Origin: Acidimicrobiales bacterium
Lineage (GTDB): Bacteria > Actinomycetota > Acidimicrobiia > Acidimicrobiales > Palsa-688
Assembly (NCBI GenBank): GCA_036378675.1
Contig: DASUWA010000032.1
Location: 124,001-188,000, forward strand
Reading direction: 5' to 3'
DNA: 64,000 nt
Shown here piece after piece: positions 49,510 through 60,664 of the stretch (positions within the stretch are counted from its first letter, which is position 1; every line of letters begins with the position of its first letter). Made by a program: the position numbers and the translations under genes. Under the pieces are notes generated by a model. It saw only the letters and a program-made list of their open reading frames with translations, was not told the DNA's origin and made no database searches.

Positions 49510-50883
49510 TTATTGCTTCACCGCTCTGGTTGTCAGGCCCCACCCGAAGTGCCAGATGGGCCGGGTGCTCCTGTGTATCGATTCCATCACCGAGCAGAAT
49601 GCCCGAACGAACTGTGAGGCCTCGTCGGCGGTTGTTACCAGGGGCGGCAGCAGCTTGAGCACGTCGACGTGATCGCCGGCGGTCTGCGTGAGGATGTTGT
49701 GCTGTTCGAAGAGGGAGCACACGACCATCTGGGTGAACAGCCCCCGGCGGGCGAAGGTCAGAGGCGTGTATCGGTTGCGTAGCCTGCGCGAATTCGGTCT
49801 GCCGAACTCGATGCCGATCATCAAGCCGCGCCCGCGAACGTCGACGACCAGTTCGTAGCGTTCCGCGGCGGCCTTCAGCTCAGATTGCAGGCGGCCACCT
49901 ACGCTCGCTGCGTTGGCGATCAGCCCCTCGTCGTCTATGACTGAAAGGGTGGCCAGGCCAGCGGCCATCGCGAGCGCGTTCCCGCCGTAGGTGGAGCCGT
50001 GCACCAGGACGCGATCCATCGACGAGTAGACCCGCTCGAAGATCTGAGTCGTAGTGAGGGTTGCCGCGACCGGGACGAACCCGCCGGAGAGGGTCTTGCC
50101 GATGGTGACGATGTCCGGATGAACCCCGTCGTGCTCATGGCAGAGAAAACGTCCGGTCCTCCCGAGACCGGTCTGCACCTCGTCACAAATGAGCAACGCG
50201 CCCTTGCGGTGGAGAAGCTCGGCAGCCTCGGCCAGGTACCCGTCGGGAGATACACGGACAGTCTTTCCCTGGATGGGCTCGACGATGAGAGCGGCGACAC
50301 CGCCCTTGTGGAGCTCCGAGCTCAAGGCGGCGAGGTCACCGAAGGGCACCGATGTGCCGGGCAGCAGCGGACCGAACCCGGCCCGGAACTCCCGCGCCCC
50401 GTTGACGGACAACGACCCGGCCGTCAACCCGTGGAACGCGTGCTCGCAGTAGAGGACTCTCGGCTTGCCGGTGAAGTACCTGGCGAACTTGAGGGCGGTC
50501 TCCACCGCCTCGGTGCCGCTGCTCGAAAAGTACACACGATCGAGCGTGGGAACTCGCTCGATGAGCGCTTCGCCGAGGAGTCCCGCCAGCAAAGGGGTGT
50601 CCATCTGGACCATGTCGGCCAACTCGGCGTCGAGGGTTTCGCGTATGGCCTTCCGCACCTCGGGGTTCGAACGGCCGATCCCGAACACGCCGAAACCTGA
50701 CAGATAGTCGAGGTAACTCTGCCCGGAGTCGTCGTAGAGGTACGAGCCCTCGGCTCTCTCCCATCGCTTGTCGAACCCGATCGAGCGGAGGACACGCGGC
50801 GTCTGTGGGTTGAGGTATTTCGACCACAGTGCAGCCCCTTCGCCCTTGCGGGCCTGAAGGACGCTGGGCAGGTCGAATCCCAT
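49510..50883 (-). CDS. hpnO: Hopanoid class III aminotransferase (HpnO-like)
   Basis: A 457-residue class III PLP aminotransferase. YFSSSGTEAVETALKFARYFTG near residue 120-140, ALLICDEVQTGLGRTG with the PLP-binding Asp near 230, and the Lys in IVTIGKTLSGGFVPV near 258 are all there. Its operon with hpnH and shc identifies it as the HpnO-type enzyme that makes aminobacteriohopanetriol. ATG at 50883. It is the last gene of the hopanoid operon, 21 bp after hpnH. Confidence 0.85.
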   Translation of the reverse strand: MGFDLPSVLQARKGEGAALWSKYLNPQTPRVLRSIGFDKRWERAEGSYLYDDSGQSYLDYLSGFGVFGIGRSNPEVRKAIRETLDAELADMVQMDTPLLAGLLGEALIERVPTLDRVYFSSSGTEAVETALKFARYFTGKPRVLYCEHAFHGLTAGSLSVNGAREFRAGFGPLLPGTSVPFGDLAALSSELHKGGVAALIVEPIQGKTVRVSPDGYLAEAAELLHRKGALLICDEVQTGLGRTGRFLCHEHDGVHPDIVTIGKTLSGGFVPVAATLTTTQIFERVYSSMDRVLVHGSTYGGNALAMAAGLATLSVIDDEGLIANAASVGGRLQSELKAAAERYELVVDVRGRGLMIGIEFGRPNSRRLRNRYTPLTFARRGLFTQMVVCSLFEQHNILTQTAGDHVDVLKLLPPLVTTADEASQFVRAFCSVMESIHRSTRPIWHFGWGLTTRAVKQ

Positions 50884-50904: not shown

Positions 50905-51909
50905 CTACGAGCCGACCGCCGCTCGCAAGGACTCCTTCAATGAGTGGGTGGTCGCCAGCACCGCGCTTGGCTCGTAGCCGCAGTGCGCCATGCAGTTTGC
51001 GCACCGCGGGTCCCTGCCCTTCCCGTAGCGGTCCCAGTCGGTCGTTTCGATCAGCTCCCTGTAGGTGGAGGCGTAGCCGTCGGCCATGAGGTAGCAGGGC
51101 CGTTGCCATCCGAAGACCGAGTAGCTCGGGATCCCCCACGGAGTGCACTGGAAGTCGACCTTTCCTTCGAGAAAGTCGAGGAACAGCGGGCTGTGGTTGA
51201 AGCGCCAGTGCTTGCGCCGGCCACCGGCGAACGCTTCCGCGAACAGCTGCTGCGAGCTGCGCGGGGACAGGAAGTGAACCTGGTCGGGAGCCTTCTCGTA
51301 GGCGTAGCCCGGCGAGATCATCATCTGGTCGACACCCAGGTCGTCGTTGAGGTAGTCGAGCACCTCGCGGACGGTTTCAGGGGAGTCCGTGCTGAAGAAG
51401 GTGGTGTTGGTGGTCACCTTGAAGCCCTTCTCCTTGGCTTTCTTTATGGCCGCAACAGCCTTGTCGAATGTCCCTTCGCGGCTAACCGACTCGTCGTGCC
51501 GCTCGCGCAGGCCGTCGATGTGAACAACCCAGCTGAAGCGCGGATGTGGTTCGAACCTGTCGAGCTTTCGTTCGAGCAGAAGCGCGTTGGTGCACAGGTA
51601 CACGTAGCGACCCATGTCCAGGAGGGCCTGGGTCATCTTGTCGATCTCGGGATGCAAAAGTGGTTCTCCGCCCGCGATTGACACCATGGGAGCTCCGCAC
51701 TCCTCGATCGCCGCGACGGCCTGCTCTACCGACAATCTCTTGCGGAGGATCTCCGTGGGGTACTGGATCTTTCCGCACCCGTTGCACTCCAGGTTGCACG
51801 CGAACAGCGGCTCCAACTCGACTATGAGCGGGAACTTGTCTCGGCCTGCCAGCTTCTGACGAATCAGGTAGCTGCCGATCTTCATGCTTTGGCGTAGGGG
51901 GACTCCCAC
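50905..51909 (-). CDS. hpnH: Adenosyl-hopene transferase, radical SAM (HpnH)
   Basis: A 334-residue radical SAM enzyme. C38-x3-C42-x2-C45 in ACNLECNGCGK binds the 4Fe-4S cluster, GGEPLLHPEIDKM is the SAM-binding motif, and a C-terminal Cys cluster is in CANCMAHCGYEPSA. HpnH joins an adenosyl radical to diploptene to give adenosylhopane, the first step of side-chain extension. GTG at 51909 with GGAGG eight bases upstream; the ispH fusion stop is the previous base. Confidence 0.94.
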   Translation of the reverse strand: MGVPLRQSMKIGSYLIRQKLAGRDKFPLIVELEPLFACNLECNGCGKIQYPTEILRKRLSVEQAVAAIEECGAPMVSIAGGEPLLHPEIDKMTQALLDMGRYVYLCTNALLLERKLDRFEPHPRFSWVVHIDGLRERHDESVSREGTFDKAVAAIKKAKEKGFKVTTNTTFFSTDSPETVREVLDYLNDDLGVDQMMISPGYAYEKAPDQVHFLSPRSSQQLFAEAFAGGRRKHWRFNHSPLFLDFLEGKVDFQCTPWGIPSYSVFGWQRPCYLMADGYASTYRELIETTDWDRYGKGRDPRCANCMAHCGYEPSAVLATTHSLKESLRAAVGS

Positions 51910-53469
51910 CTAACGGACCTCCACTGGTAGGGGAAAGTTTACGTTCTCGACGCGCACCGAGCGCTCTTCGACTTCAACCGGACCGAGCCCGCCGAGCGCG
52001 TCGACCAACCGGTCGACCAGGACCGGTGGCGCGGACGCCCCGGCTGTCACGCCGATGGTTCGAGCCTCCCGAAGCCACTCGAGCTTCAGGTCTCGTTCGT
52101 CATCGACCATCACCGCTCGGCAACCCGCCTTGGTGGCGACCTCTACGAGCCTGGCGGTGTTGGAGGAGTTCCTCGATCCGATCACCGCGAGGAGGTCGCA
52201 TTCTCCCGCCATCGCCAGCACCGCTTCCTGACGGTTCTGGGTGGCGTAACAAATGTCGGCGGCGTGCGGACCGACGACGCTGGGAAATCTCTTGGACAAA
52301 GCCCCCACCAAGTTCGCGACATCGCCAGGGGCAAGAGTGGTCTGGGTGATGTAGGCGAGCTTGTCGGGGTCGTCGACTTCGAGGGCGGCGACATCCGCCT
52401 CGTTCTCGATGAGCGTGATGCCCTCCTGCTCGCCCAAGGTTCCCTCGGTCTCGTCGTGACCGGCGTGGCCGATCAGGACGACCTGATGTCCGCGGCCCGC
52501 GAAGCGATTCACTTCGTGGTGAACTTTGGCCACGAGCGGGCAGGTGGCGTCCACCACCCGCAGAGAGCGGTCGGCCGCATCCGACCGAACCGCCGGAGCC
52601 ACTCCGTGTGCGGAGAAGACCACGGTGGCCCCGTGCGGAACCTCGTCGAGCTCCTGGACGAACACCGTCCCGCGGGCTTCGAGCTCCTCGACGACGTGGC
52701 GATTGTGAACGATCTGTCGTCTGACGTATACCGGTGCACCGAAGCGCTCGAGGGCTCGTTCCACGGTCTCGATCGCGCGTTCGACTCCCGCGCAGAACGA
52801 GCGAGGCCCCGCGAGCAGGATCCGGCGTTCTCCGACGGCCGACGCCCACTCCTCCAGCACTGGTGCCGCGGAGCGCAGCGCGGTAAGAGCCCTCCGGCCG
52901 GCCGCGAGAGTCCTCACCGAGCGCAACTCTCTCTCGGGCGTGTCGGCTACTACCCGGACGACGGCCACGGGACATTCCCACGGCTCGGCAAGGATCGTGG
53001 CGGTTTCCATGTCGACGGCGACAGCTCCGAGCTCCGAGAATTGCTCCCGGGCGTTGCGTCCGTGGACGATGCGGTCCGTCGAGACGACCGTTCCCACCTC
53101 AACGGACAACCCGGCGTGGATCAGGTTGGCTGCCAGCAGGTTCGCCGAACGCAGTTCGGCGACGAGGTTGCCGTTCTTGTCGATGACCCTGTCGGCGACG
53201 ACGACCGTTCCGGGCTGGATACCCGGGCGAAGCCCGCCGGCGACGCCGGCGACCGCCACCGCCGCGGGCGCGTCGAGTCTGGCCAGACGCTTCACCGCGT
53301 TGCGGGCTTTGACAGGACCGGCGCCTGTGCGAACCACAACGGTCGACGCGCGGCGCGGCGCCAGAGCCCGGGCCTCCAGGCGTAGCGGGGCGAATAGCAC
53401 GAGCCCCGCGTGCCTCGGCCCGTGGACGGCGACTCCGGGACCGCTGATCGGCCCGGGGACGGCGCTCAC
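51910..53469 (-). CDS. HpnG nucleosidase-IspH reductase fusion protein
   Basis: A 519-residue protein made of two complete domains. Residues 1-205 match a HpnG-type nucleoside phosphorylase: VAVAGVAGGLRPGIQPGTVVVAD and the catalytic-region VDMETATILAE near 152-162. Residues 214-519 match IspH, with the three 4Fe-4S Cys at C226 (SFCAGVERA), C310 (DATCPLVAKVH) and C407 (DICYATQNR), and E340 in the HxExEG loop. HpnG removes adenine from adenosylhopane; IspH makes IPP and DMAPP. Joining them links precursor supply and side-chain processing. GTG at 53469 overlaps the shc stop. The junction is in frame with no stop. Confidence 0.9.
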   Translation of the reverse strand: MSAVPGPISGPGVAVHGPRHAGLVLFAPLRLEARALAPRRASTVVVRTGAGPVKARNAVKRLARLDAPAAVAVAGVAGGLRPGIQPGTVVVADRVIDKNGNLVAELRSANLLAANLIHAGLSVEVGTVVSTDRIVHGRNAREQFSELGAVAVDMETATILAEPWECPVAVVRVVADTPERELRSVRTLAAGRRALTALRSAAPVLEEWASAVGERRILLAGPRSFCAGVERAIETVERALERFGAPVYVRRQIVHNRHVVEELEARGTVFVQELDEVPHGATVVFSAHGVAPAVRSDAADRSLRVVDATCPLVAKVHHEVNRFAGRGHQVVLIGHAGHDETEGTLGEQEGITLIENEADVAALEVDDPDKLAYITQTTLAPGDVANLVGALSKRFPSVVGPHAADICYATQNRQEAVLAMAGECDLLAVIGSRNSSNTARLVEVATKAGCRAVMVDDERDLKLEWLREARTIGVTAGASAPPVLVDRLVDALGGLGPVEVEERSVRVENVNFPLPVEVR

Positions 53470-55424
53470 CCGGATGTCTCCGGCCTCGATGCGGTCAGGG
53501 AGTTCGCCGAGGCGGTGCTGCTTGCGGTGACGTACCGGCCGAGCGCCATCACCGGCCAAACCAGTCGGTAAAGGTGGTAGTTGATGGAGAAGTCCCAGGG
53601 GAATCCGGTTCCGGTGAACCACGGCTCGTCCCAGGTTCCCTCTGTGGTCTGGTGTTCGACCAACCACTGCACGCCGCGACGGGTGGATTCGGCGGCGGCG
53701 TCGCCGGCGGCGATCAGCGCCAGGAGCGCCCAGGCAGTCTGCGAAGGAGTCGAATCTCCGCGACCGCGCCAGTTGTCATCGACATATGAGCGGATGTCTT
53801 CGCCCCATCCGCCGTCGGGATTCTGTTGCTGCTCGAGCCATTGGACGGCTTGTCGGATCCGCGGATCGTCGGGATGCGCGCCGGCTTCGATGAGGGCGGG
53901 AACGGCGGCGCCGGTCCCGTATATGTAGTTCACTCCCCAACGTCCGAACCATGAGCCGTCCGGTTCCTGTTGACGCCACAGCCAGGCCGAGGCGCGGTTG
54001 ACCACCTCGGGAGCGACTTGGCGCTCGGCTGCCAGCATCTCCAAAACGTGCGCAGTTACGTCGGCCGAGGGGGGGTCGGTGACCTCGCCGAAATCGCAGA
54101 AGGGAAGCTTGGCAATGAGACGGCTGTCGTTGTCGACGTCGAACGCCCCCCAGCCGGCGTCCTTGCATTGCATGCCGAGCGTCCATTCGACTCCGCGCTC
54201 ACAGGCGGCATCGCCGTCGGGACCCGCAGAGCCGCCCACCCGGCGCAGAGCCATGATCACCTCGGCGGTGTCATCGATATCGGGGTAGTTGTCGTTGGCG
54301 AACTCGAACGCCCAGCCACCGGATTGCAGAAGTGGTCGCCGGATGGCCCAGTCGCCACGTACTTGAATCTCCTCGCCAACCAGCCACCGCGCAGCAGCTT
54401 TCAAGGAGGGGTCTCCCTCGTCGACGCCGGCATCGCGTAGCGCTACGACGGCGAGCGCGGTGTCCCAAACGGGGGATTGGCATGCTTCGAGTCGCCGGCC
54501 TCGCTCGTCCCGGATCGTAAAACCGTCGATGCCCCTGAAAGCGGCTTGAAGGACCGGGTGGTCCAGGGGATAGCCGAGGAGGTCGAGGGCGATTATCGAG
54601 TACACGACGGGAGGCTGGATGCCTCCCCACAAACCGTCGGCCTCCTGGCGGCGCAAGATCCAACGCTCGGCTTTCGACACGGCGGCCTTCCGGATCAGCG
54701 ACTTGGGCAGCACCCAACCGGGAATCCGCTCGTAACGGTGAAGCAGAGCATCGAGAATTGCGAAGCGACCCGCGGTGCTCCGAATGCTGGCGCGGGTCCG
54801 GCTGGAACGAGCCTTTCCCGAGAGGAGCTCCTCCACGCTGAAGGGCAGCGGCCGGGACGGGCGGTGGGCCATCACGACCGTTAGTGCCACGATGGTCTGG
54901 CGTGCCCAACAAGCGAAGTCGTAGATGTTCAGCGGCGCCCTGGCTGGAAGGAACATCACCTCCGGTGGAATGACCGGCAGGTCCTCCCAGTCCCAAACGC
55001 CTAGCACTGCCATCCAGATACGCGTGAAAACGCGCGACGCTTCGATCCCGCCGCTCTCGCGAATCCAGTTGGCCGCTTCGAGCATGTGCGCGTCGCCGGG
55101 TTCGTCGCCGGCCAAACGGAGCGCGACGTAAGCCTCGACGGTCGTCGACAGGTCCGGCGGTCCTCCGCGGAACGTCGACCATGTGCCCCCAGTCTGCTGG
55201 TTCGAGCGGATCCAACGAGCAGTCTCGGCGGCCGGACCGGGTTCGACGATTCCCAGGTAGTGCCGAAGCATCATGTCCTCGGCGTCCATGGTGACGTTGG
55301 TCTCGAGCTCGGCCTTCCACCAGCCCTCTGCGCTCTGGAGGGACAGGAGGTGCTCTACCGCGGCCTCCAACGACGCCTCGACGGGCGGACGCGCCGCAGT
55401 CCCGGCCGGGTCGCTCGAGGTCAC
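53466..55424 (-). CDS. shc: Squalene-hopene cyclase
   Basis: A 652-residue class II triterpene cyclase. The catalytic acid motif is DIDDTAEV (DxDD) near residue 383, and several QW repeats are visible, such as AAVEHLLSLQSAEGWWKAE near the N-terminus, AVQWLEQQQNPDGGWGED and GVQWLVEHQTTEGTWDEPWFTG at the C-terminus. It cyclises squalene to hopene at the membrane. GTG at 55424 overlaps the prenyl synthase stop, and its own stop overlaps the hpnG/ispH start. Confidence 0.96.
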   Translation of the reverse strand: MTSSDPAGTAARPPVEASLEAAVEHLLSLQSAEGWWKAELETNVTMDAEDMMLRHYLGIVEPGPAAETARWIRSNQQTGGTWSTFRGGPPDLSTTVEAYVALRLAGDEPGDAHMLEAANWIRESGGIEASRVFTRIWMAVLGVWDWEDLPVIPPEVMFLPARAPLNIYDFACWARQTIVALTVVMAHRPSRPLPFSVEELLSGKARSSRTRASIRSTAGRFAILDALLHRYERIPGWVLPKSLIRKAAVSKAERWILRRQEADGLWGGIQPPVVYSIIALDLLGYPLDHPVLQAAFRGIDGFTIRDERGRRLEACQSPVWDTALAVVALRDAGVDEGDPSLKAAARWLVGEEIQVRGDWAIRRPLLQSGGWAFEFANDNYPDIDDTAEVIMALRRVGGSAGPDGDAACERGVEWTLGMQCKDAGWGAFDVDNDSRLIAKLPFCDFGEVTDPPSADVTAHVLEMLAAERQVAPEVVNRASAWLWRQQEPDGSWFGRWGVNYIYGTGAAVPALIEAGAHPDDPRIRQAVQWLEQQQNPDGGWGEDIRSYVDDNWRGRGDSTPSQTAWALLALIAAGDAAAESTRRGVQWLVEHQTTEGTWDEPWFTGTGFPWDFSINYHLYRLVWPVMALGRYVTASSTASANSLTASRPETSG

Positions 55425-56464
55425 GCCTCGCGCTCCACCACGAACACCGCGATGTCAGCTAGGTCTCGGTGCGGGATGGCTGACAGACGCACGCGCTCCA
55501 GAGCCCCCAGCGCGGCGTCGAGATTGGCCTTGGCTCGCACGGTGGTCCACTCGCGTCCACCACAAGCTTCGACGAGATAGCGCGCACGATCGATCTCGTC
55601 CGGGGAAAGCGGAAGAAGCGGATTGTCCGAGTCGGGAGGTCCGACGATGAGCATCCGAAGCTCATCGGCCTCTTCGCCGCCGGCAGCCAGCGCGGACACG
55701 ACTGGCATCGACTTCTTTCTCTGGCGGAGATCGCTGCCGGAAGGCTTGCCAGTCCGCGAAGGATCGCCCCATATCCCCAGCAAATCGTCGACGGCTTGGA
55801 ACGCGAGGCCGAGGTGCCTGCCGTAGTCCCGGAGCGCACCGACCGTGGCGGGGGGAGCCCCTGCAAGGAGCGCTCCGATCGACGCGGCGCAGCCGAGCAG
55901 CGCTCCGGTCTTCGCGGCGCACATCGCGGTGCATTGCTCGACGGTCACGTCTCGGCGGGTTTCGAAAGCGATGTCGTCCGCCTGGCCGGCGATCATCGCA
56001 GCCGTGGCGTCGGCCAGCGCGGCCGAGGCGGCCGCGCCCCAGGCATCCGACGCCTCGAGAAGAATTTGGTGGGCGAGCACCTGCAACGCGTCCCCGGCCA
56101 CGATTGCCGGACCGACGCCGAACAGCGACCATACCGTCGGGCGGTGGTGTCGTTCGGTGTCCGCGTCGATGATGTCGTCGTGGATCAGCGAGAAGTTGTG
56201 GACCAGCTCGATGGCCACCCCGCCTGGCACACCGATCTCTGGATCGGCCCAGGCAGCTGCCGCCCCGAGCATCGCCAGGGTCGGCCGGATCCCCTTTCCG
56301 CCCGAGCCGGACACAGGGTTCCCGTCGGGGTCGGTCCAGCCGAGGTGATACGCAGCCAAGCGGCGGATCTCCGGCGCGAGCCGGTCCACCGCGGCGGACA
56401 TGGCCGGGGTAATCGCTTCACGCGTGCGTTCGAGCACCTGCGGTACTCCGAGAGTCGGGGTCAC
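55421..56464 (-). CDS. Polyprenyl (farnesyl) diphosphate synthase
   Basis: A 347-residue trans-prenyl synthase. The first Asp-rich motif is LIHDDIIDADTERH near residue 85-95, the second VDDLLGIWGD, and GKGIRPTLAMLG binds IPP. It supplies farnesyl diphosphate for squalene made by HpnC/HpnD; chain length is inferred from context. GTG at 56464 has AGGAGG just upstream and overlaps the hpnE stop. An open frame extends farther upstream but lies in hpnE. Confidence 0.9.
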   Translation of the reverse strand: MTPTLGVPQVLERTREAITPAMSAAVDRLAPEIRRLAAYHLGWTDPDGNPVSGSGGKGIRPTLAMLGAAAAWADPEIGVPGGVAIELVHNFSLIHDDIIDADTERHHRPTVWSLFGVGPAIVAGDALQVLAHQILLEASDAWGAAASAALADATAAMIAGQADDIAFETRRDVTVEQCTAMCAAKTGALLGCAASIGALLAGAPPATVGALRDYGRHLGLAFQAVDDLLGIWGDPSRTGKPSGSDLRQRKKSMPVVSALAAGGEEADELRMLIVGPPDSDNPLLPLSPDEIDRARYLVEACGGREWTTVRAKANLDAALGALERVRLSAIPHRDLADIAVFVVEREA

Positions 56465-57942
56465 GCAACCTCCTGATGTGTCGAAGCCATTCCAGGGGAC
56501 TGGCCCGTTGCTGAGATACCTACGGATGAACACGCCGCGCTCGAGAGGCATGCGTGCGCAGCCGTCCGTCCGCTTCGTACGGCGCCTTCCATGGTCGCCG
56601 GCCACCCGGTCTCCGTCCATGCTCCCGCGATGGCGAGACCCGCAAACTTGGTGCTCTGTGCCGGCCGGAGTCGCGCGGTGCCCGGCTTGGCGGCGAAGGT
56701 CGCCCGGCGCTCCTTGGTCACGAGGGAGTCGAGCAGCTTCGCTCCGGCAACCGCAGGCAGCAGATGCTGTAACTCGGAGTTGATCCACGAGACAACGTCA
56801 TCTGGACGCCGTGCGAGGAGGTCGTCTGCTGCGGACATCGAAACCGCCAGGTACTGCCGAGCCGGCCTTGATGACGACTCAGTTTGCAGGCCGGCCAACC
56901 CGGAGGATTCGGTCCGGTCGAACACCCACTGGACGGGGGAGTTCACGGCCGCCATGAGCTCCCAGTCGGTCACCTTCCGGTCGTAGACGAGATGAACGTC
57001 GACGATCGAGGAGAATCCAAGCTCGTCGATGATGTTCTGGTTGTCGATGGAGCCCTCGGGCAGAAGGCTGGCCGCCTCGTCGTGTGGCACAGCGACGATC
57101 ACGCCGTCCGATCGGAGGTCCCATCCGACGGCGGACACGACATACCCGCGCTGCGCGTCGTGTCTGTTTGTCGATTCGCCATCGGCACAGTCGTTCAAGC
57201 CGACACGCTGGACTCTCTCCCCCAAACGGATTTCGACGCCCGCTTCGCGAAGCGCCGAGGATGCCCGATCTCCGTGCAGCCGTCCGAGCGGAACCCTGCT
57301 CCAACCGATGTCCGCTGCGTTCGTGTCTTCCAGAAGCCCGGTCTTGAACACCTTGGCGGCCATCGCCAGGGATGCCTCGGAAGAAGGCAGGTTCACCGTC
57401 GGGATGGTGATCAGATCCCAGACCGCGTTCACCGACCCAGGTGTCTGGGCGTGCCGGTAGAGCCACGCGGCGAACGTTTCTGAGTCGAGGGCGCGGTCAT
57501 CGAGGCGTAGCTTTCGCAGTCCTGCTACCGCAACCCCGAGGCGCAACCGGTCCGACAGGCCGAGGTGCGGGTAACGAAGAAGGGAGCCCGCGAGATGGAA
57601 CGGTGCGGGAAGGCCGGATCTCCGAAGCCGCCCGACGACCGGGGAGCCGTTCCTTCCCGGAGCCACGACTGGAATGTCGAGGCGGCCCGGCAGGTGGGCG
57701 TCGCCTAGCCCGCCGATGCGGTCGAGGAAGCGGAGGTAATCGTCGCAGCAGCGGAGAAAGACGTGCTGCCCGTTATCGACCCACATGTCCCCGTGCTGGA
57801 AGGACCAGGTCAGCCCGCCAAGATGGTTCCGCCGTTCGATCAGCGTCACCCGCGCGCCACGATCGGCGCATTCGAGGGCAGCGGAGATACCCGCGAGCCC
57901 CCCGCCGATCACCGTGATCTTCGGTGCCTCCCGAGCCGTCAT
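56461..57942 (-). CDS. hpnE: Hydroxysqualene dehydroxylase (HpnE)
   Basis: A 493-residue FAD amine-oxidase-fold protein. The FAD motif VIGGGLAGISAALECADRG is near residue 11, ERRNHLGGLTWSF follows, and the C-terminal GLAIAGAWTETGWPATMEGAVRSG is the second FAD-contact motif. HpnE reduces hydroxysqualene to squalene, following HpnC and HpnD. ATG at 57942 overlaps the hpnD stop as ATGA. Confidence 0.92.
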   Translation of the reverse strand: MTAREAPKITVIGGGLAGISAALECADRGARVTLIERRNHLGGLTWSFQHGDMWVDNGQHVFLRCCDDYLRFLDRIGGLGDAHLPGRLDIPVVAPGRNGSPVVGRLRRSGLPAPFHLAGSLLRYPHLGLSDRLRLGVAVAGLRKLRLDDRALDSETFAAWLYRHAQTPGSVNAVWDLITIPTVNLPSSEASLAMAAKVFKTGLLEDTNAADIGWSRVPLGRLHGDRASSALREAGVEIRLGERVQRVGLNDCADGESTNRHDAQRGYVVSAVGWDLRSDGVIVAVPHDEAASLLPEGSIDNQNIIDELGFSSIVDVHLVYDRKVTDWELMAAVNSPVQWVFDRTESSGLAGLQTESSSRPARQYLAVSMSAADDLLARRPDDVVSWINSELQHLLPAVAGAKLLDSLVTKERRATFAAKPGTARLRPAQSTKFAGLAIAGAWTETGWPATMEGAVRSGRTAAHACLSSAACSSVGISATGQSPGMASTHQEVA

Positions 57943-58856
57943 ACCGTCCCCCTCGTCAACGCCCGCACTGCGACCCGCGCCTTTTGCGAACCCGACAACG
58001 AGATCCGCCCTCTGAGAACCGAATCCGGCTCTGCTTCGATGCGGTCAAGGAGACGCCGATATATGCCAGCCATCGCTGCCGTGCACGCCCTCGATCGCCA
58101 GTCGAGCATCGGGAGCAGTTGCAGGCCTTCGGCGTAACAGGTGCGGGCGCGCGCAGCCTCGAACCGGATGAGCGCGGTGATGCCGTCCTCCCCGCCCTGC
58201 AGGTCGGTCCAGCTCTGCACGTCGGACGGTACCCCGAAGCGGTTCCTGTCGTCGGCAGGTAGATAGATCCTGCCCATCGTTTCGAGGTCCTCGACGATGT
58301 CGCGCAGGATGTTGGTGATTTGAAGTGCCACCCCGAGCGAATCGGCCAAGGACTCCGCCTTCTCGCGGTCCGCGGTCGCCTTGGTTCCGTAAACGGCAAG
58401 GCTGAGTCTCCCGACTGTTCCGGCGACCCGCCGGCAGTACCCGACCAGGTCGTCGAAGGTGCGGTACCCGACGCCGTTCACGTCCATCTCGCAGCCTTCG
58501 ATCAGCTCGACGAGCGCGTCCATCGGGAGAGGGAAGCGCGCCGCCGCGTCGGCGAGCGCGACCAGCACCGGGTCGGAGCCGCCGCTCGACGGATCCTGGC
58601 TCAGATCGGAGATCGACTTGCGCACCTCGGCGAGGGAGCGGAGCTTCTCGTGAGTAGCCGCGCTGCCGTCGCCGATGTCATCGATACGTCGCGCCATCGC
58701 GTAGAGGGCGCACATCGCCCGTCGTTTCTCGGCAGGGAGCAACCGGATGCCGTACGAAAAGTTGCGAGCCTGCTCGGAGGTGATCTTCTCGCAAGCCTCA
58801 TAGGCCTCTTCGGCACCGAGAGTGCGCGCCTGCATACACGTTTGGTCGATTGTCAT
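57939..58856 (-). CDS. hpnD: Presqualene diphosphate synthase (HpnD)
   Basis: A 305-residue squalene/phytoene synthase-family protein. ARNFSYGIRLLPAEKRRAMCALYAMARRIDDIGD near residues 33-66 holds the first Asp motif (RRIDDIGD), and LQITNILRDIVEDLETMGRIYLP the second (RDIVED). It makes presqualene diphosphate from two farnesyl diphosphates. The ATG at 58856 overlaps the hpnC stop as ATGA, preferred over a start 39 bp upstream. Confidence 0.92.
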   Translation of the reverse strand: MTIDQTCMQARTLGAEEAYEACEKITSEQARNFSYGIRLLPAEKRRAMCALYAMARRIDDIGDGSAATHEKLRSLAEVRKSISDLSQDPSSGGSDPVLVALADAAARFPLPMDALVELIEGCEMDVNGVGYRTFDDLVGYCRRVAGTVGRLSLAVYGTKATADREKAESLADSLGVALQITNILRDIVEDLETMGRIYLPADDRNRFGVPSDVQSWTDLQGGEDGITALIRFEAARARTCYAEGLQLLPMLDWRSRACTAAMAGIYRRLLDRIEAEPDSVLRGRISLSGSQKARVAVRALTRGTV

Positions 58857-59827
58857 CGGCGCGGACCTGGAACGAGGATGCGCCCGATGTGCCACATCAC
58901 TCGAGCAACCTTGGGACTCACGTGTCGGGGCAGGGGATCGAATCGCTGTGCCTCCAGAGCGTCGACGGCGGCGAGGCCACCCGCCCAGAAACCCGCTACC
59001 GCCAGCTTCAGCCGTCCGCCGAGCGAGGCGATCAGAGGAGCGCCCCGATCGAGGAAGTCACGCACCCGCCCGCACTCGAGGGCCATGAGCGCGCGCAAGG
59101 ACGGGCTCGCCGGGCCAGTCCCCAGGAGTTCTGAGGTTTCGACACCGAAGGTGCGAAGGTCCTCGCACGGAAGGTAGACCCTGCCCGCGCGGGCGTCTTC
59201 GCCGACGTCCTGCCAGTGCTCCACCAGTTGCAACCCGGTGCAGATGGCATCGGACCAACGTTCCCGGTCATCCGTGGCGACGCCGAACAATTCGAGGACC
59301 AACCGCCCAACCGGATTGGCGGAGAGCTCGCAGTACCCGAGCAGGTCTTCGAAGGACTCGTACTGCTTCACCGTCTGGTCCTGCCGATTTGCACAGATGA
59401 GGTCGAGCAGCAGGCCGACCGACACCCTGCCGTCCCGAACGAGGTTCCCCGCCGCGGCCATGATCGGATGGGCGCCGGCGGCTCCGGCCGTGGCGCGGCG
59501 TAGCTCGAATTCCACCCAGTCGAGGGCCGCCAGGCGGTCGCCGTCGTAGTTGTCGCCGATCTCGTCGACGAAACGGGCGTAGCGGTAGACGTCCATCAGC
59601 GGGTCACGGAAGTCGCGCGGAAGGAGCCGGGACGCGACCCGGAAGTTCTCCGTTCGGGCGCGGGCTGTGATCGAGTCGAGGGAAGGCAGGCCGGCGGGAG
59701 CCGTCAAGCCTTCGTCCCGCAGGTACCCTGCGGTCCTCGAGCCGGTCGGGGGGTCGCCGGGACGTGTGTAAGGGGGTGACCGCGTGGTCACAAGTTGTAC
59801 GCGCCCCCGGCAGCGCGTGTCAAGCAT
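58853..59827 (-). CDS. hpnC: Hydroxysqualene synthase (HpnC)
   Basis: A 324-residue squalene synthase-like enzyme. VYRYARFVDEIGD near residue 82 carries the first Asp-motif variant and LQLVEHWQDVGEDARAGRVYLP the second. HpnC turns presqualene diphosphate into hydroxysqualene. The ATG at 59827 is used, with AAAGGGG just upstream; later GTG is possible. It starts the overlapping hopanoid gene chain, 33 bp after the two-HTH regulator gene. Confidence 0.9.
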   Translation of the reverse strand: MLDTRCRGRVQLVTTRSPPYTRPGDPPTGSRTAGYLRDEGLTAPAGLPSLDSITARARTENFRVASRLLPRDFRDPLMDVYRYARFVDEIGDNYDGDRLAALDWVEFELRRATAGAAGAHPIMAAAGNLVRDGRVSVGLLLDLICANRQDQTVKQYESFEDLLGYCELSANPVGRLVLELFGVATDDRERWSDAICTGLQLVEHWQDVGEDARAGRVYLPCEDLRTFGVETSELLGTGPASPSLRALMALECGRVRDFLDRGAPLIASLGGRLKLAVAGFWAGGLAAVDALEAQRFDPLPRHVSPKVARVMWHIGRILVPGPRR

Positions 59828-59860: not shown

Positions 59861-60664
59861 TCAGTTGTTTTGGACCGGTGGTTCCTCGTCATCGGGGGGC
59901 CAGTCCGGCCCGACCGCCCACGATAGGACCGTGGCGAACGCCCGCTCGATCACGCCCAGGCCGGCCGTGACCGCTTCATCGACATCGCCATCTGGAGCGA
60001 ACGGGCGGCCCCCGGTCTCGGCGAGGGTTCGCAGCACCTTGCGGGCCAGGTCGGCGCTCGGCTCGTGCCCCTTCGCCGCTCGGGCTCCCAACTCGAGAAG
60101 GATCGGCAGGACCCCGGCCAAAAGGTGCCCGAAGACCAGGGCCGCCTTCTCGGGGTTGGCGTTCAGGCCCTCGGCACCCCCGAGGCTCTCGACGGTCTCC
60201 CCGAATCGCTTTGCCGTGTCGTCGAGCAGCTTCTCGATCGCCGCGGTGAGCAGGTCCTCCTTCGACTCGAAGTACCGGTAGACGCTGCCCTTGGCCATGT
60301 GACAGGCCTCGGCGATGTCGCTGATGGTCACTTCGTTATAACTGTGGGTGCGGAAGGCCTCTATGGCAGCATCGACGATGCCCTCTCGGCACTCGGGGGA
60401 ATCTGTCGAGTGCGAGCGGATCTCGAGCAGGGCCCTGAGGTGAGAGTTGTCGTACCCGAACCGGTTGGCCGCCTCTCGCACGGGCGGGGGGATCAGGCCG
60501 GAGCGGCGGTAATGATGAATGGTGCTGGCCGGCACCCCGCTCCGCTGGACCAGCTCCGATAGAGACATGCGTCGGGACACCCGTTGGGACGTTGACTCGT
60601 GCACTTCCTCAGGGGCAGTGGCATCGGCAGTAGGGTCCGGCCCCTCCCGCGCCTCTGGCTTCAC
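59861..60664 (-). CDS. Two-HTH regulator: MerR-like domain fused to TetR
   Basis: A 267-residue protein. Residues 33-84, with LSELVQRSGVPASTIHHYRRSGLIPPPV, resemble a MerR winged HTH. Residues about 92-140, with THSYNEVTISDIAEACHMAKGSVYRYFESKEDLL, are a TetR HTH, followed by a TetR-type ligand domain. Each has the characteristic turn residues. It lies directly upstream of hpnC on the same strand, so it may control hopanoid synthesis and itself. GTG at 60664 is used; a start at MSLSEL (residue 33) would keep both HTHs. Confidence 0.8.
   Translation of the reverse strand: MKPEAREGPDPTADATAPEEVHESTSQRVSRRMSLSELVQRSGVPASTIHHYRRSGLIPPPVREAANRFGYDNSHLRALLEIRSHSTDSPECREGIVDAAIEAFRTHSYNEVTISDIAEACHMAKGSVYRYFESKEDLLTAAIEKLLDDTAKRFGETVESLGGAEGLNANPEKAALVFGHLLAGVLPILLELGARAAKGHEPSADLARKVLRTLAETGGRPFAPDGDVDEAVTAGLGVIERAFATVLSWAVGPDWPPDDEEPPVQNN

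What the first reader, a model, noticed from the sequence alone, without database searches (positions are those of the whole stretch)
51910..53469. Single-protein fusion of HpnG nucleosidase and IspH reductase
The sequence shows one uninterrupted frame with a full nucleoside-phosphorylase domain (residues 1-205) and a full IspH domain (214-519) with all three cluster Cys. HpnG and IspH are normally separate and catalyse distant steps: side-chain processing of adenosylhopane and IPP/DMAPP synthesis. The fusion within a shc operon ties isoprenoid supply to hopanoid output in one polypeptide.
Basis: partly seen in the sequence, partly recalled or inferred. Interest (0 to 1): 0.7.

Follow-up and report, generated by a model that had tools for sequence, protein, structure and literature searches.

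The report
Hopanoid nucleosidase fused to isoprenoid reductase
One gene in a bacterial membrane-lipid (hopanoid) operon really does join an enzyme that trims the lipid's side chain to the enzyme that makes its building blocks; the joined gene is common among actinobacteria and was already noted in print for Frankia, but there as a possible accident and without the link to hopanoids.

Summary
On the MINUS strand, window 53469-51910 is one 519-aa frame: an HpnG-type nucleoside-phosphorylase domain joined to a complete IspH. It lies in an operon hpnC-hpnD-hpnE-polyprenyl synthase-shc-[hpnG-ispH]-hpnH-aminotransferase. It is not an assembly error: 23 of 32 genomes of its family carry it (3 cut by contig ends), as do 46 of 394 sampled genomes of another class and 3 of 27 of a third. 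The joint has nearly constant length in 55 genes (71-76 residues, 73 in 40). The nucleosidase acids checked are kept in all but one gene, and the IspH residues in all, where covered. Of the 23 family genomes 19 also show a second, free ispH, so the fused IspH looks hopanoid-dedicated.

The architecture is not new: Rao et al. 2015 (PMC4746011) list a 'UDP/PNP phosphorylase'-IspH fusion in Frankia, call it a possible random event and do not mention hopanoids. What I add: the partner is HpnG, the fusion sits in hopanoid operons of several classes, the HpnG parts form one group, and unfused and decayed states exist. Best reading: two separately working enzymes made as one chain for co-expression, without substrate channelling. 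Coupling of isoprenoid supply to hopanoid output remains inference.

The parts
51910..53469 (-). HpnG-IspH fusion gene, 519 aa, GTG start, TAG stop
   Evidence: predicted structure (mean pLDDT 88.1, pTM 0.83)
52840..53469 (-). N-terminal HpnG-type nucleosidase/phosphorylase domain, residues 1-210; E32, D153-M-E155 and D176 present; residues 1-18 poorly predicted
52828..52839 (-). four-residue joint, residues 211-214, between the last HpnG helix (186-210) and the first IspH strand (215-220) of the predicted model
51913..52827 (-). IspH (LytB) domain, residues 215-519; cluster cysteines C226, C310, C407
53466..55424 (-). shc, squalene-hopene cyclase, next upstream, 4-bp overlap
   Evidence: TIGR01507 740.5 bits, cut-off 431.1
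50905..51909 (-). hpnH, adenosylhopene transferase (radical SAM), next downstream; the true start may lie a few codons inside
   Evidence: TIGR03470 526.5 bits, cut-off 225.05
49510..50883 (-). class-III aminotransferase; HpnO by position (name inferred)
   Evidence: PF00202 301.3 bits; no HpnO-named model among the 25 NCBIfam rows shown
55421..56788 (-). polyprenyl diphosphate synthase; the true start is probably nearer 56460 (inferred from the overlap with hpnE)
   Evidence: PF00348 172.4 bits
56461..57942 (-). hpnE, hydroxysqualene dehydroxylase
   Evidence: TIGR03467 411.9 bits, cut-off 283.05
57939..58895 (-). hpnD, presqualene diphosphate synthase
   Evidence: TIGR03465 281.9 bits, cut-off 278.6
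58853..59827 (-). hpnC, squalene synthase HpnC
   Evidence: TIGR03464 274 bits, cut-off 250.45

Best explanation
An actinobacterial hopanoid-operon protein of two enzymes that most likely both work. The HpnG domain removes adenine from adenosylhopane, the product of the next gene hpnH, giving ribosylhopane. The IspH domain reduces HMBPP to IPP/DMAPP with a [4Fe-4S] cluster, as a second, hopanoid-dedicated copy beside the free ispH. The fusion most likely arose by loss of the stop between adjacent hpnG and ispH in a shc-hpnG-ispH-hpnH operon, since the joint comes right where free HpnG of related operons ends. Its main effect is probably equal production of both enzymes with the pathway; substrate channelling is unlikely because the reactions are many steps apart. 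Shown here: the joined frame, its conservation, the operon, the kept residues and purifying selection. Inferred: both activities, the dedicated role, the route of fusion, the effect on flux.
For: Domains and operon. Fusion in 23 of 32 family genomes, 5 of 396 phylum genomes, 46 of 394 genomes of the class of G277, 3 of 27 of the class of G328. In 26 of 26 loci L193-L212 and L217-L222 at least one hopanoid gene (shc or hpnH) was recognised beside the fusion (L217 and L202 are one genome, so 25 genomes). Second free ispH in 19 of the 23 fusion genomes; the other four are 59-68% complete. Catalytic-type residues: E32 in 52 of 52 rows that cover it, E155 and D176 in 54 of 55; IspH positions kept in every row that covers them (53 to 55 of 55). 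dN/dS below 1 in both domains. Free HpnG of the 11 f33 genomes ends 9 residues after the Trp that I equate with W208. HpnG-domain trees: fusions one group, SH-aLRT 95 with 29 fusion rows and 93 with 54. Free ispH directly upstream of hpnH in 4 of 76 named non-fusion loci. HpnG reaction as reviewed in PMC12583986 (passage).
Against: No activity was measured. The HpnG domain scores 74.4 bits on TIGR03468, below its cut-off of 187.1, though a free HpnG in a shc-hpnG-hpnH operon scores 75.1. No other MEP gene looked for is in the operon or doubled: one ispG and one full-length dxs were found, on other contigs, so extra IspH alone may not raise flux. In L018 the HpnG domain has lost two of the acids. 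G030 and G413 have shc-ispH-hpnH without the HpnG domain. IspH and HpnH trees do not follow the fusion state cleanly: 9 unfused rows lie inside the IspH group of 53 fusion rows, and free-HpnG operons lie among fused ones in the HpnH tree. The immediate unfused ancestor, free hpnG directly beside free ispH, was not seen in the loci read. In several loci (e.g. L217) about 1.4 kb separates the fusion from hpnH.
Confidence: 0.72

Rival explanations
1. The joint does more than co-express: the HpnG domain (or its adenine or adenosylhopane ligand) gates or positions IspH, so that isoprenoid supply answers to side-chain processing.
For: Near-constant spacing of the domains in 55 genes; a helix running into the first IspH strand with four residues between, block pLDDT 94-96 there; L018 keeps the whole N-terminal domain and about the same spacing (71) although two acids are lost.
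Against: A Trp in the same place is present in free HpnG of 11 f33 genomes, so W208 is not fusion-specific; two genomes keep the IspH in the operon without any HpnG domain; L018 may simply be decaying; a short joint follows from stop-codon loss alone.
Confidence: 0.12
2. The fused IspH domain no longer serves the MEP pathway but reduces a hopanoid, for example ribosylhopane to bacteriohopanetetrol, a step whose enzyme is not established (PMC12583986, passage).
For: A second ordinary ispH exists; the partner domain is expected to make ribosylhopane; the fused copy lies in the hopanoid operon.
Against: All IspH positions checked are kept and the domain is 51-52% identical to E. coli IspH over about 308 columns; ribosylhopane is not an allylic alcohol diphosphate.
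Confidence: 0.04
3. The fusion is functionally neutral, a chance read-through kept because it does no harm (the view PMC4746011 left open for its single-species fusions).
For: Unfused and degenerate states exist in related genomes; the paper calls such cases possibly random.
Against: Found in at least three classes and eleven anonymous families, with purifying selection on both parts in the 8 pairs tried.
Confidence: 0.12
4. Assembly or sequencing error joining two genes.
For: The window genome is in 75 contigs.
Against: Same joint in 55 genes, including single-contig genomes.
Confidence: 0

Closest known systems
UDP/PNP phosphorylase-IspH fusion of Frankia sp. QA3, EUN1f, EAN1pec (Rao et al. 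2015, PMC4746011, Fig. 2d legend; part 1 of the text, section 16 and passages of other sections read)
   Same: A phosphorylase-superfamily domain joined to IspH in an actinobacterium; the published name 'UDP-IspH' suggests the same order. One anonymous family with 31 of the 46 fusions (f91) is probably Frankia's (my inference).
   Different: The paper reports single species, suggests possible chance, relates it to 'phosphorus metabolism' and its main text has no word starting with hopan or nucleosid. Here the domain is HpnG, in the shc operon, in several classes.
IspH-RPS1 (many gut anaerobes) and IspH-UbiA (sulfate reducers) fusions (PMC4746011)
   Same: IspH fused to another functional protein; IspH-UbiA was also read as isoprenoid supply joined to its user.
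   Different: UbiA lies C-terminal to IspH (section 16), RPS1 by the order of its name; here HpnG is N-terminal to IspH.
Free HpnG in shc-hpnG-hpnH operons (11 genomes of f33, probably Streptomyces; L130-L138, L140, L141)
   Same: Same place between shc and hpnH, same C-terminal segment with Trp, similar TIGR03468 score in the one tested, L131.
   Different: No IspH attached or recognised beside it in the loci held.
ispH-hpnH gene pairs of Pseudomonadota (L040, L055, L059, L081)
   Same: ispH directly upstream of hpnH.
   Different: ispH is free; hpnG, where recognised (L059, L081), is elsewhere on the locus.

Membership tests
IspH / LytB (TIGR00216, PF02401) | Score over curated cut-off | tested here: met
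   304.8 bits vs 187.85; 306.3 vs 24.5
IspH / LytB (TIGR00216, PF02401) | Three cluster cysteines and substrate-site residues (roles recalled; E126 and T167 of E. coli IspH appear as mutants in PDB titles) | tested here: met
   C226, C310, C407, H255, H288, H338, E340, T378, S435, N437, S479
IspH / LytB (TIGR00216, PF02401) | HMBPP reduction | not testable with these tools
   no assay
HpnG (TIGR03468) | Score over curated cut-off 187.1 | tested here: not met
   74.4 bits, best of the nucleosidase-type models for this protein; the free HpnG L131 of a shc-hpnG-hpnH operon also misses it with 75.1, and 0 of 6 genomes searched reached it, so the model seems not to cover this actinobacterial HpnG. 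I therefore say HpnG-type by domain, place and relatives, not by the model
HpnG (TIGR03468) | Phosphorylase/nucleosidase fold with the catalytic-type acids | tested here: met
   PF01048 over cut-off; fold matches to MTA phosphorylases and nucleosidases; acids kept. E155 and D176 align with MTAN chains; E32 rests on the HpnG alignment and recall
HpnG (TIGR03468) | Genomic place with shc and hpnH | tested here: met
   directly between them
HpnG (TIGR03468) | Adenine release from adenosylhopane | not testable with these tools
   no assay
PNP-IspH fusion of PMC4746011 | Phosphorylase-superfamily domain plus IspH in one chain | tested here: met
   the Frankia sequences themselves were not compared by name

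The most novel reading that the evidence does not exclude
The fusion is a supply-demand switch: a hopanoid-dedicated IspH whose activity or placing is set by an attached HpnG domain that reads adenosylhopane or adenine, with a geometry kept over classes, and in one lineage (L018) the HpnG part has become a non-catalytic regulatory domain.
Probability: 0.08. Interest if true: 0.65.

Novelty: new member of a known kind. Interest (0 to 1): 0.36.

Why it matters
It turns a fusion that the literature left as a possible accident into a conserved marker of actinobacterial hopanoid operons, identifies the phosphorylase partner as HpnG-type, and supplies natural comparisons (fused, IspH alone, degenerate HpnG) for asking whether the last MEP step is dedicated to hopanoids. 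It would also help annotation: such genes carry two functions, and the TIGR03468 cut-off misses the HpnG part in the cases tested.

Tried and rejected
Rejected: assembly error. Rejected as a general rule: a separate IspH start at the junction. An in-frame ATG/GTG/TTG in the 21 codons examined (25 to 5 before the residue preceding the first IspH cysteine) exists in 43 of 55 genes, in 35 of them at a codon 6-8 before, inside the first IspH strand; in 12 there is none; the window gene has one, GTG, 21 codons before. Internal starts are not excluded gene by gene, and ribosome-binding sites were not scored.

Looked like fusions but are not: G413/L105, L106, L112 and L078, where the long frames upstream of IspH give no HpnG match and read like out-of-frame GC-rich DNA; G754, whose match began at residue 77 but whose locus shows no HpnG; G488, G683 and G510, IspH only, next to a polyprenyl synthase.

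Led nowhere or limited: Pseudomonadota, 0 of 299 at E <= 1e-112; the tool warns that an empty answer without a positive control shows little, but the same query and threshold rang in 50 of 394 (46 fusions and 4 free ispH). In some searches only 3 to 5 candidates per genome were scored, and the match list is cut, so counts are lower bounds. Other phyla were not counted. The genome-contig scan needs exact 8-residue patterns and kept 80 loci, of which 4 (L015-L018) are fusions. Class and family names of anonymous genomes are not told: 'Frankia', 'Streptomyces' and class names for G handles are my inference.

Trees are quick IQ-TREE runs with SH-aLRT only. Those were built before the class of G277 was searched and hold none of its fusions; one search repeats the IspH and HpnG trees with 25 of those 46 genomes added (the others were not fetched); the HpnH tree was not repeated. 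Before, 56 of the 76 IspH rows of L019-L094 (all but a hand-picked 20) and duplicates were dropped, so Pseudomonadota are thinly sampled. Rows dropped as duplicates before the count of 55: L001, L011, L096, L139, L142-L145, L177-L180 and L217. Four of the 55 are cut or gapped in one domain or at a contig end (L161, L168-L170), and L010 lacks part of its HpnG alignment. dN/dS used 8 pairs of my choice, with saturation likely in the distant ones.

Full report
What is there. The finding lies on the minus strand. Window 53469-51910 is a single frame of 519 codons. Its GTG start overlaps the shc stop codon by four bases and the listed hpnH frame begins directly after its stop. Pfam and NCBIfam give a phosphorylase-superfamily domain, whose best nucleosidase-type model is HpnG (74.4 bits, below the cut-off of 187.1), and a complete IspH. 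The genes around it on the same strand are hpnC, hpnD, hpnE, a polyprenyl synthase, shc, the fusion, hpnH and a class-III aminotransferase: the genes for squalene, its cyclisation and the first side-chain steps. The window lies in a genome of 4.1 Mb in 75 contigs.

Is it real? Yes. In the same family (32 genomes) 20 genomes show both domains in one frame and 3 more do so in pieces cut by contig ends (G009, G017, G026), so 23 of 32. One more, G030, has shc-ispH-hpnH without the HpnG part, and in 8 no member of the fused lineage was found. In a phylum-wide draw 5 of 396 genomes have it; in the class of G277, 46 of 394; in the class of G328, 3 of 27; among Pseudomonadota 0 of 299 at the same threshold (with the limits told under Tried and rejected). 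Named contigs with it: two 'Actinomycetes' MAGs, a Thermoleophilaceae MAG and a Solirubrobacterales MAG (L015-L018).

Anatomy of the joint. In 55 distinct fusion genes the distance from the nucleosidase motif D-M/T-E to the residue before the first IspH cysteine is 71-76 residues, 73 in 40 of them. The free HpnG of 11 genomes that I take for Streptomyces ends 9 residues after a tryptophan that I equate with W208; W208 is kept in 55 of 55 fusions. So the joint sits where HpnG naturally ends and IspH begins. The AlphaFold model (mean pLDDT 88.1, pTM 0.83, 16 sequences) has the last HpnG helix at 186-210 and the first IspH strand at 215-220. Foldseek finds E. coli IspH with E 6e-34 and, for the other part, MTA phosphorylases and nucleosidases.

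Are both parts working enzymes? By sequence, probably. E32 is kept in 52 of 52 rows that cover it, E155 and D176 in 54 of 55, and the IspH positions checked in every row that covers them. The free IspH of the same genome keeps those IspH positions too. Nei-Gojobori dN/dS is below 1 in both parts in 8 of 8 chosen pairs, with dN higher in the HpnG part in 7 of the 8. The exception is L018: a 519-aa fusion whose HpnG part reads D-H-D and has E for D at the second site; its genome holds a separate HpnG-like gene (87 bits, below cut-off). The low TIGR03468 score does not speak against HpnG, because the free HpnG of L131 scores the same (75.1).

Dedicated copy. The genome has a second, free ispH, 43% identical. 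Of the 23 family genomes with the fusion 19 show such a second copy (in G024 as two adjoining pieces); the four without are 59-68% complete. One ispG and one full-length dxs were found, neither in the operon, so of these three only IspH is doubled. The fused IspH lineage forms a group with SH-aLRT 99 (again, where 53 fusion rows and 9 free actinobacterial ispH rows share it). Of the free ones, G030 and G413 sit in the hopanoid operon; two lie beside dxs and one beside a terpene synthase and a type 2A encapsulin shell gene; four lie beside a polyprenyl synthase. The lineage thus looks like one used by secondary isoprenoid pathways.

History. The HpnG parts of the fusions form one group with SH-aLRT 95 (29 fusion rows) and 93 (54 fusion rows), which suits one fusion event but does not prove it. 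The IspH and HpnH trees are less tidy: unfused rows lie among fused ones, so later loss, splitting or transfer must be allowed. G413 and G030, which lack the HpnG part, hold a phosphorylase-type gene elsewhere. In Pseudomonadota ispH stands directly before hpnH in 4 of 76 named non-fusion loci, so the ispH-hpnH neighbourhood is wider than the fusion. Of the 30 HpnH loci fetched from the 33 hits in 396 genomes: fusion before hpnH in 5, unfused ispH in 1, free hpnG without ispH before hpnH in 11, hpnG after hpnH in 7, neither recognised in 6. In several loci of the class of G277 another stretch (about 1.4 kb in L217) lies between the fusion and hpnH.

How it most likely works. [quoted passage not shown] HpnG removes adenine to give ribosylhopane (PMC12583986, passage read, which calls HpnG a putative phosphorylase). 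IspH makes IPP and DMAPP, from which the same operon builds squalene and hopene. The two reactions are separated by the whole chain from C5 to C35, so handing a substrate across is implausible. The simplest benefit is equal production of a dedicated IspH with the hopanoid enzymes. Closeness of two cluster proteins (IspH and HpnH) that both need low-potential electrons is an idea without evidence here.

What is known. Rao et al. 2015 (PMC4746011; part 1 of the text, section 16 and passages of other sections read) describe IspH-RPS1 and IspH-UbiA and list four further fusions found in single species, among them UDP/PNP phosphorylase-IspH of Frankia; they say these could be random events. Words starting with hopan or nucleosid do not occur in its main text. 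A 2017 paper on Acidobacteria (PMC5462960, passages) says that in subdivision 1 hpnH forms a cluster with shc and ispH, although its results section names ispA there, and reports a fused hpnCD; it reports no HpnG-IspH fusion in the passages seen. My searches for a hopanoid link of the fusion: (listings; passages of PMC5462960, PMC12583986 and PMC10663253). They found none in the held open-access library; subscription papers and database annotations were not searched, so it may exist elsewhere. An unfollowed lead: PDB entry 9ql0, E. coli IspH crystallised with adenosine hemisulfate, appears.

Verdict.

Noticed in passing
L018:8004-9560: A 519-aa fusion whose HpnG domain has lost two of the catalytic-type acids but is kept in frame with about the same spacing; a separate HpnG-like gene exists in that genome.
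   Followed up: partly
L171 (G030) and L172 (G413): Hopanoid operons with shc-ispH-hpnH and no HpnG domain, within the same family and order as the window.
   Followed up: partly
L184:5531-11333: A free ispH of the fused lineage lies next to a terpene synthase, a type 2A encapsulin shell protein with a cyclic-nucleotide-binding domain, and near a polyprenyl synthase.
   Followed up: no
59861-60664 (-): One frame next upstream of hpnC carries both a MerR-type HTH (residues 33-83) and a TetR-type HTH (96-141): an unusual double regulator, possibly of the hopanoid operon; a wrong start was not excluded.
   Followed up: no
55421-56788 (-): The operon's polyprenyl synthase scores best on the family-2 encapsulin cargo model NF041169 (398.8 bits, below its cut-off of 450); whether the genome has an encapsulin shell was not checked.
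   Followed up: no
L213-L216: In four genomes of family f90 a free ispH of 55-60% identity lies next to a polyprenyl synthase, with no other hopanoid gene recognised in the 11-18 kb read.
   Followed up: no
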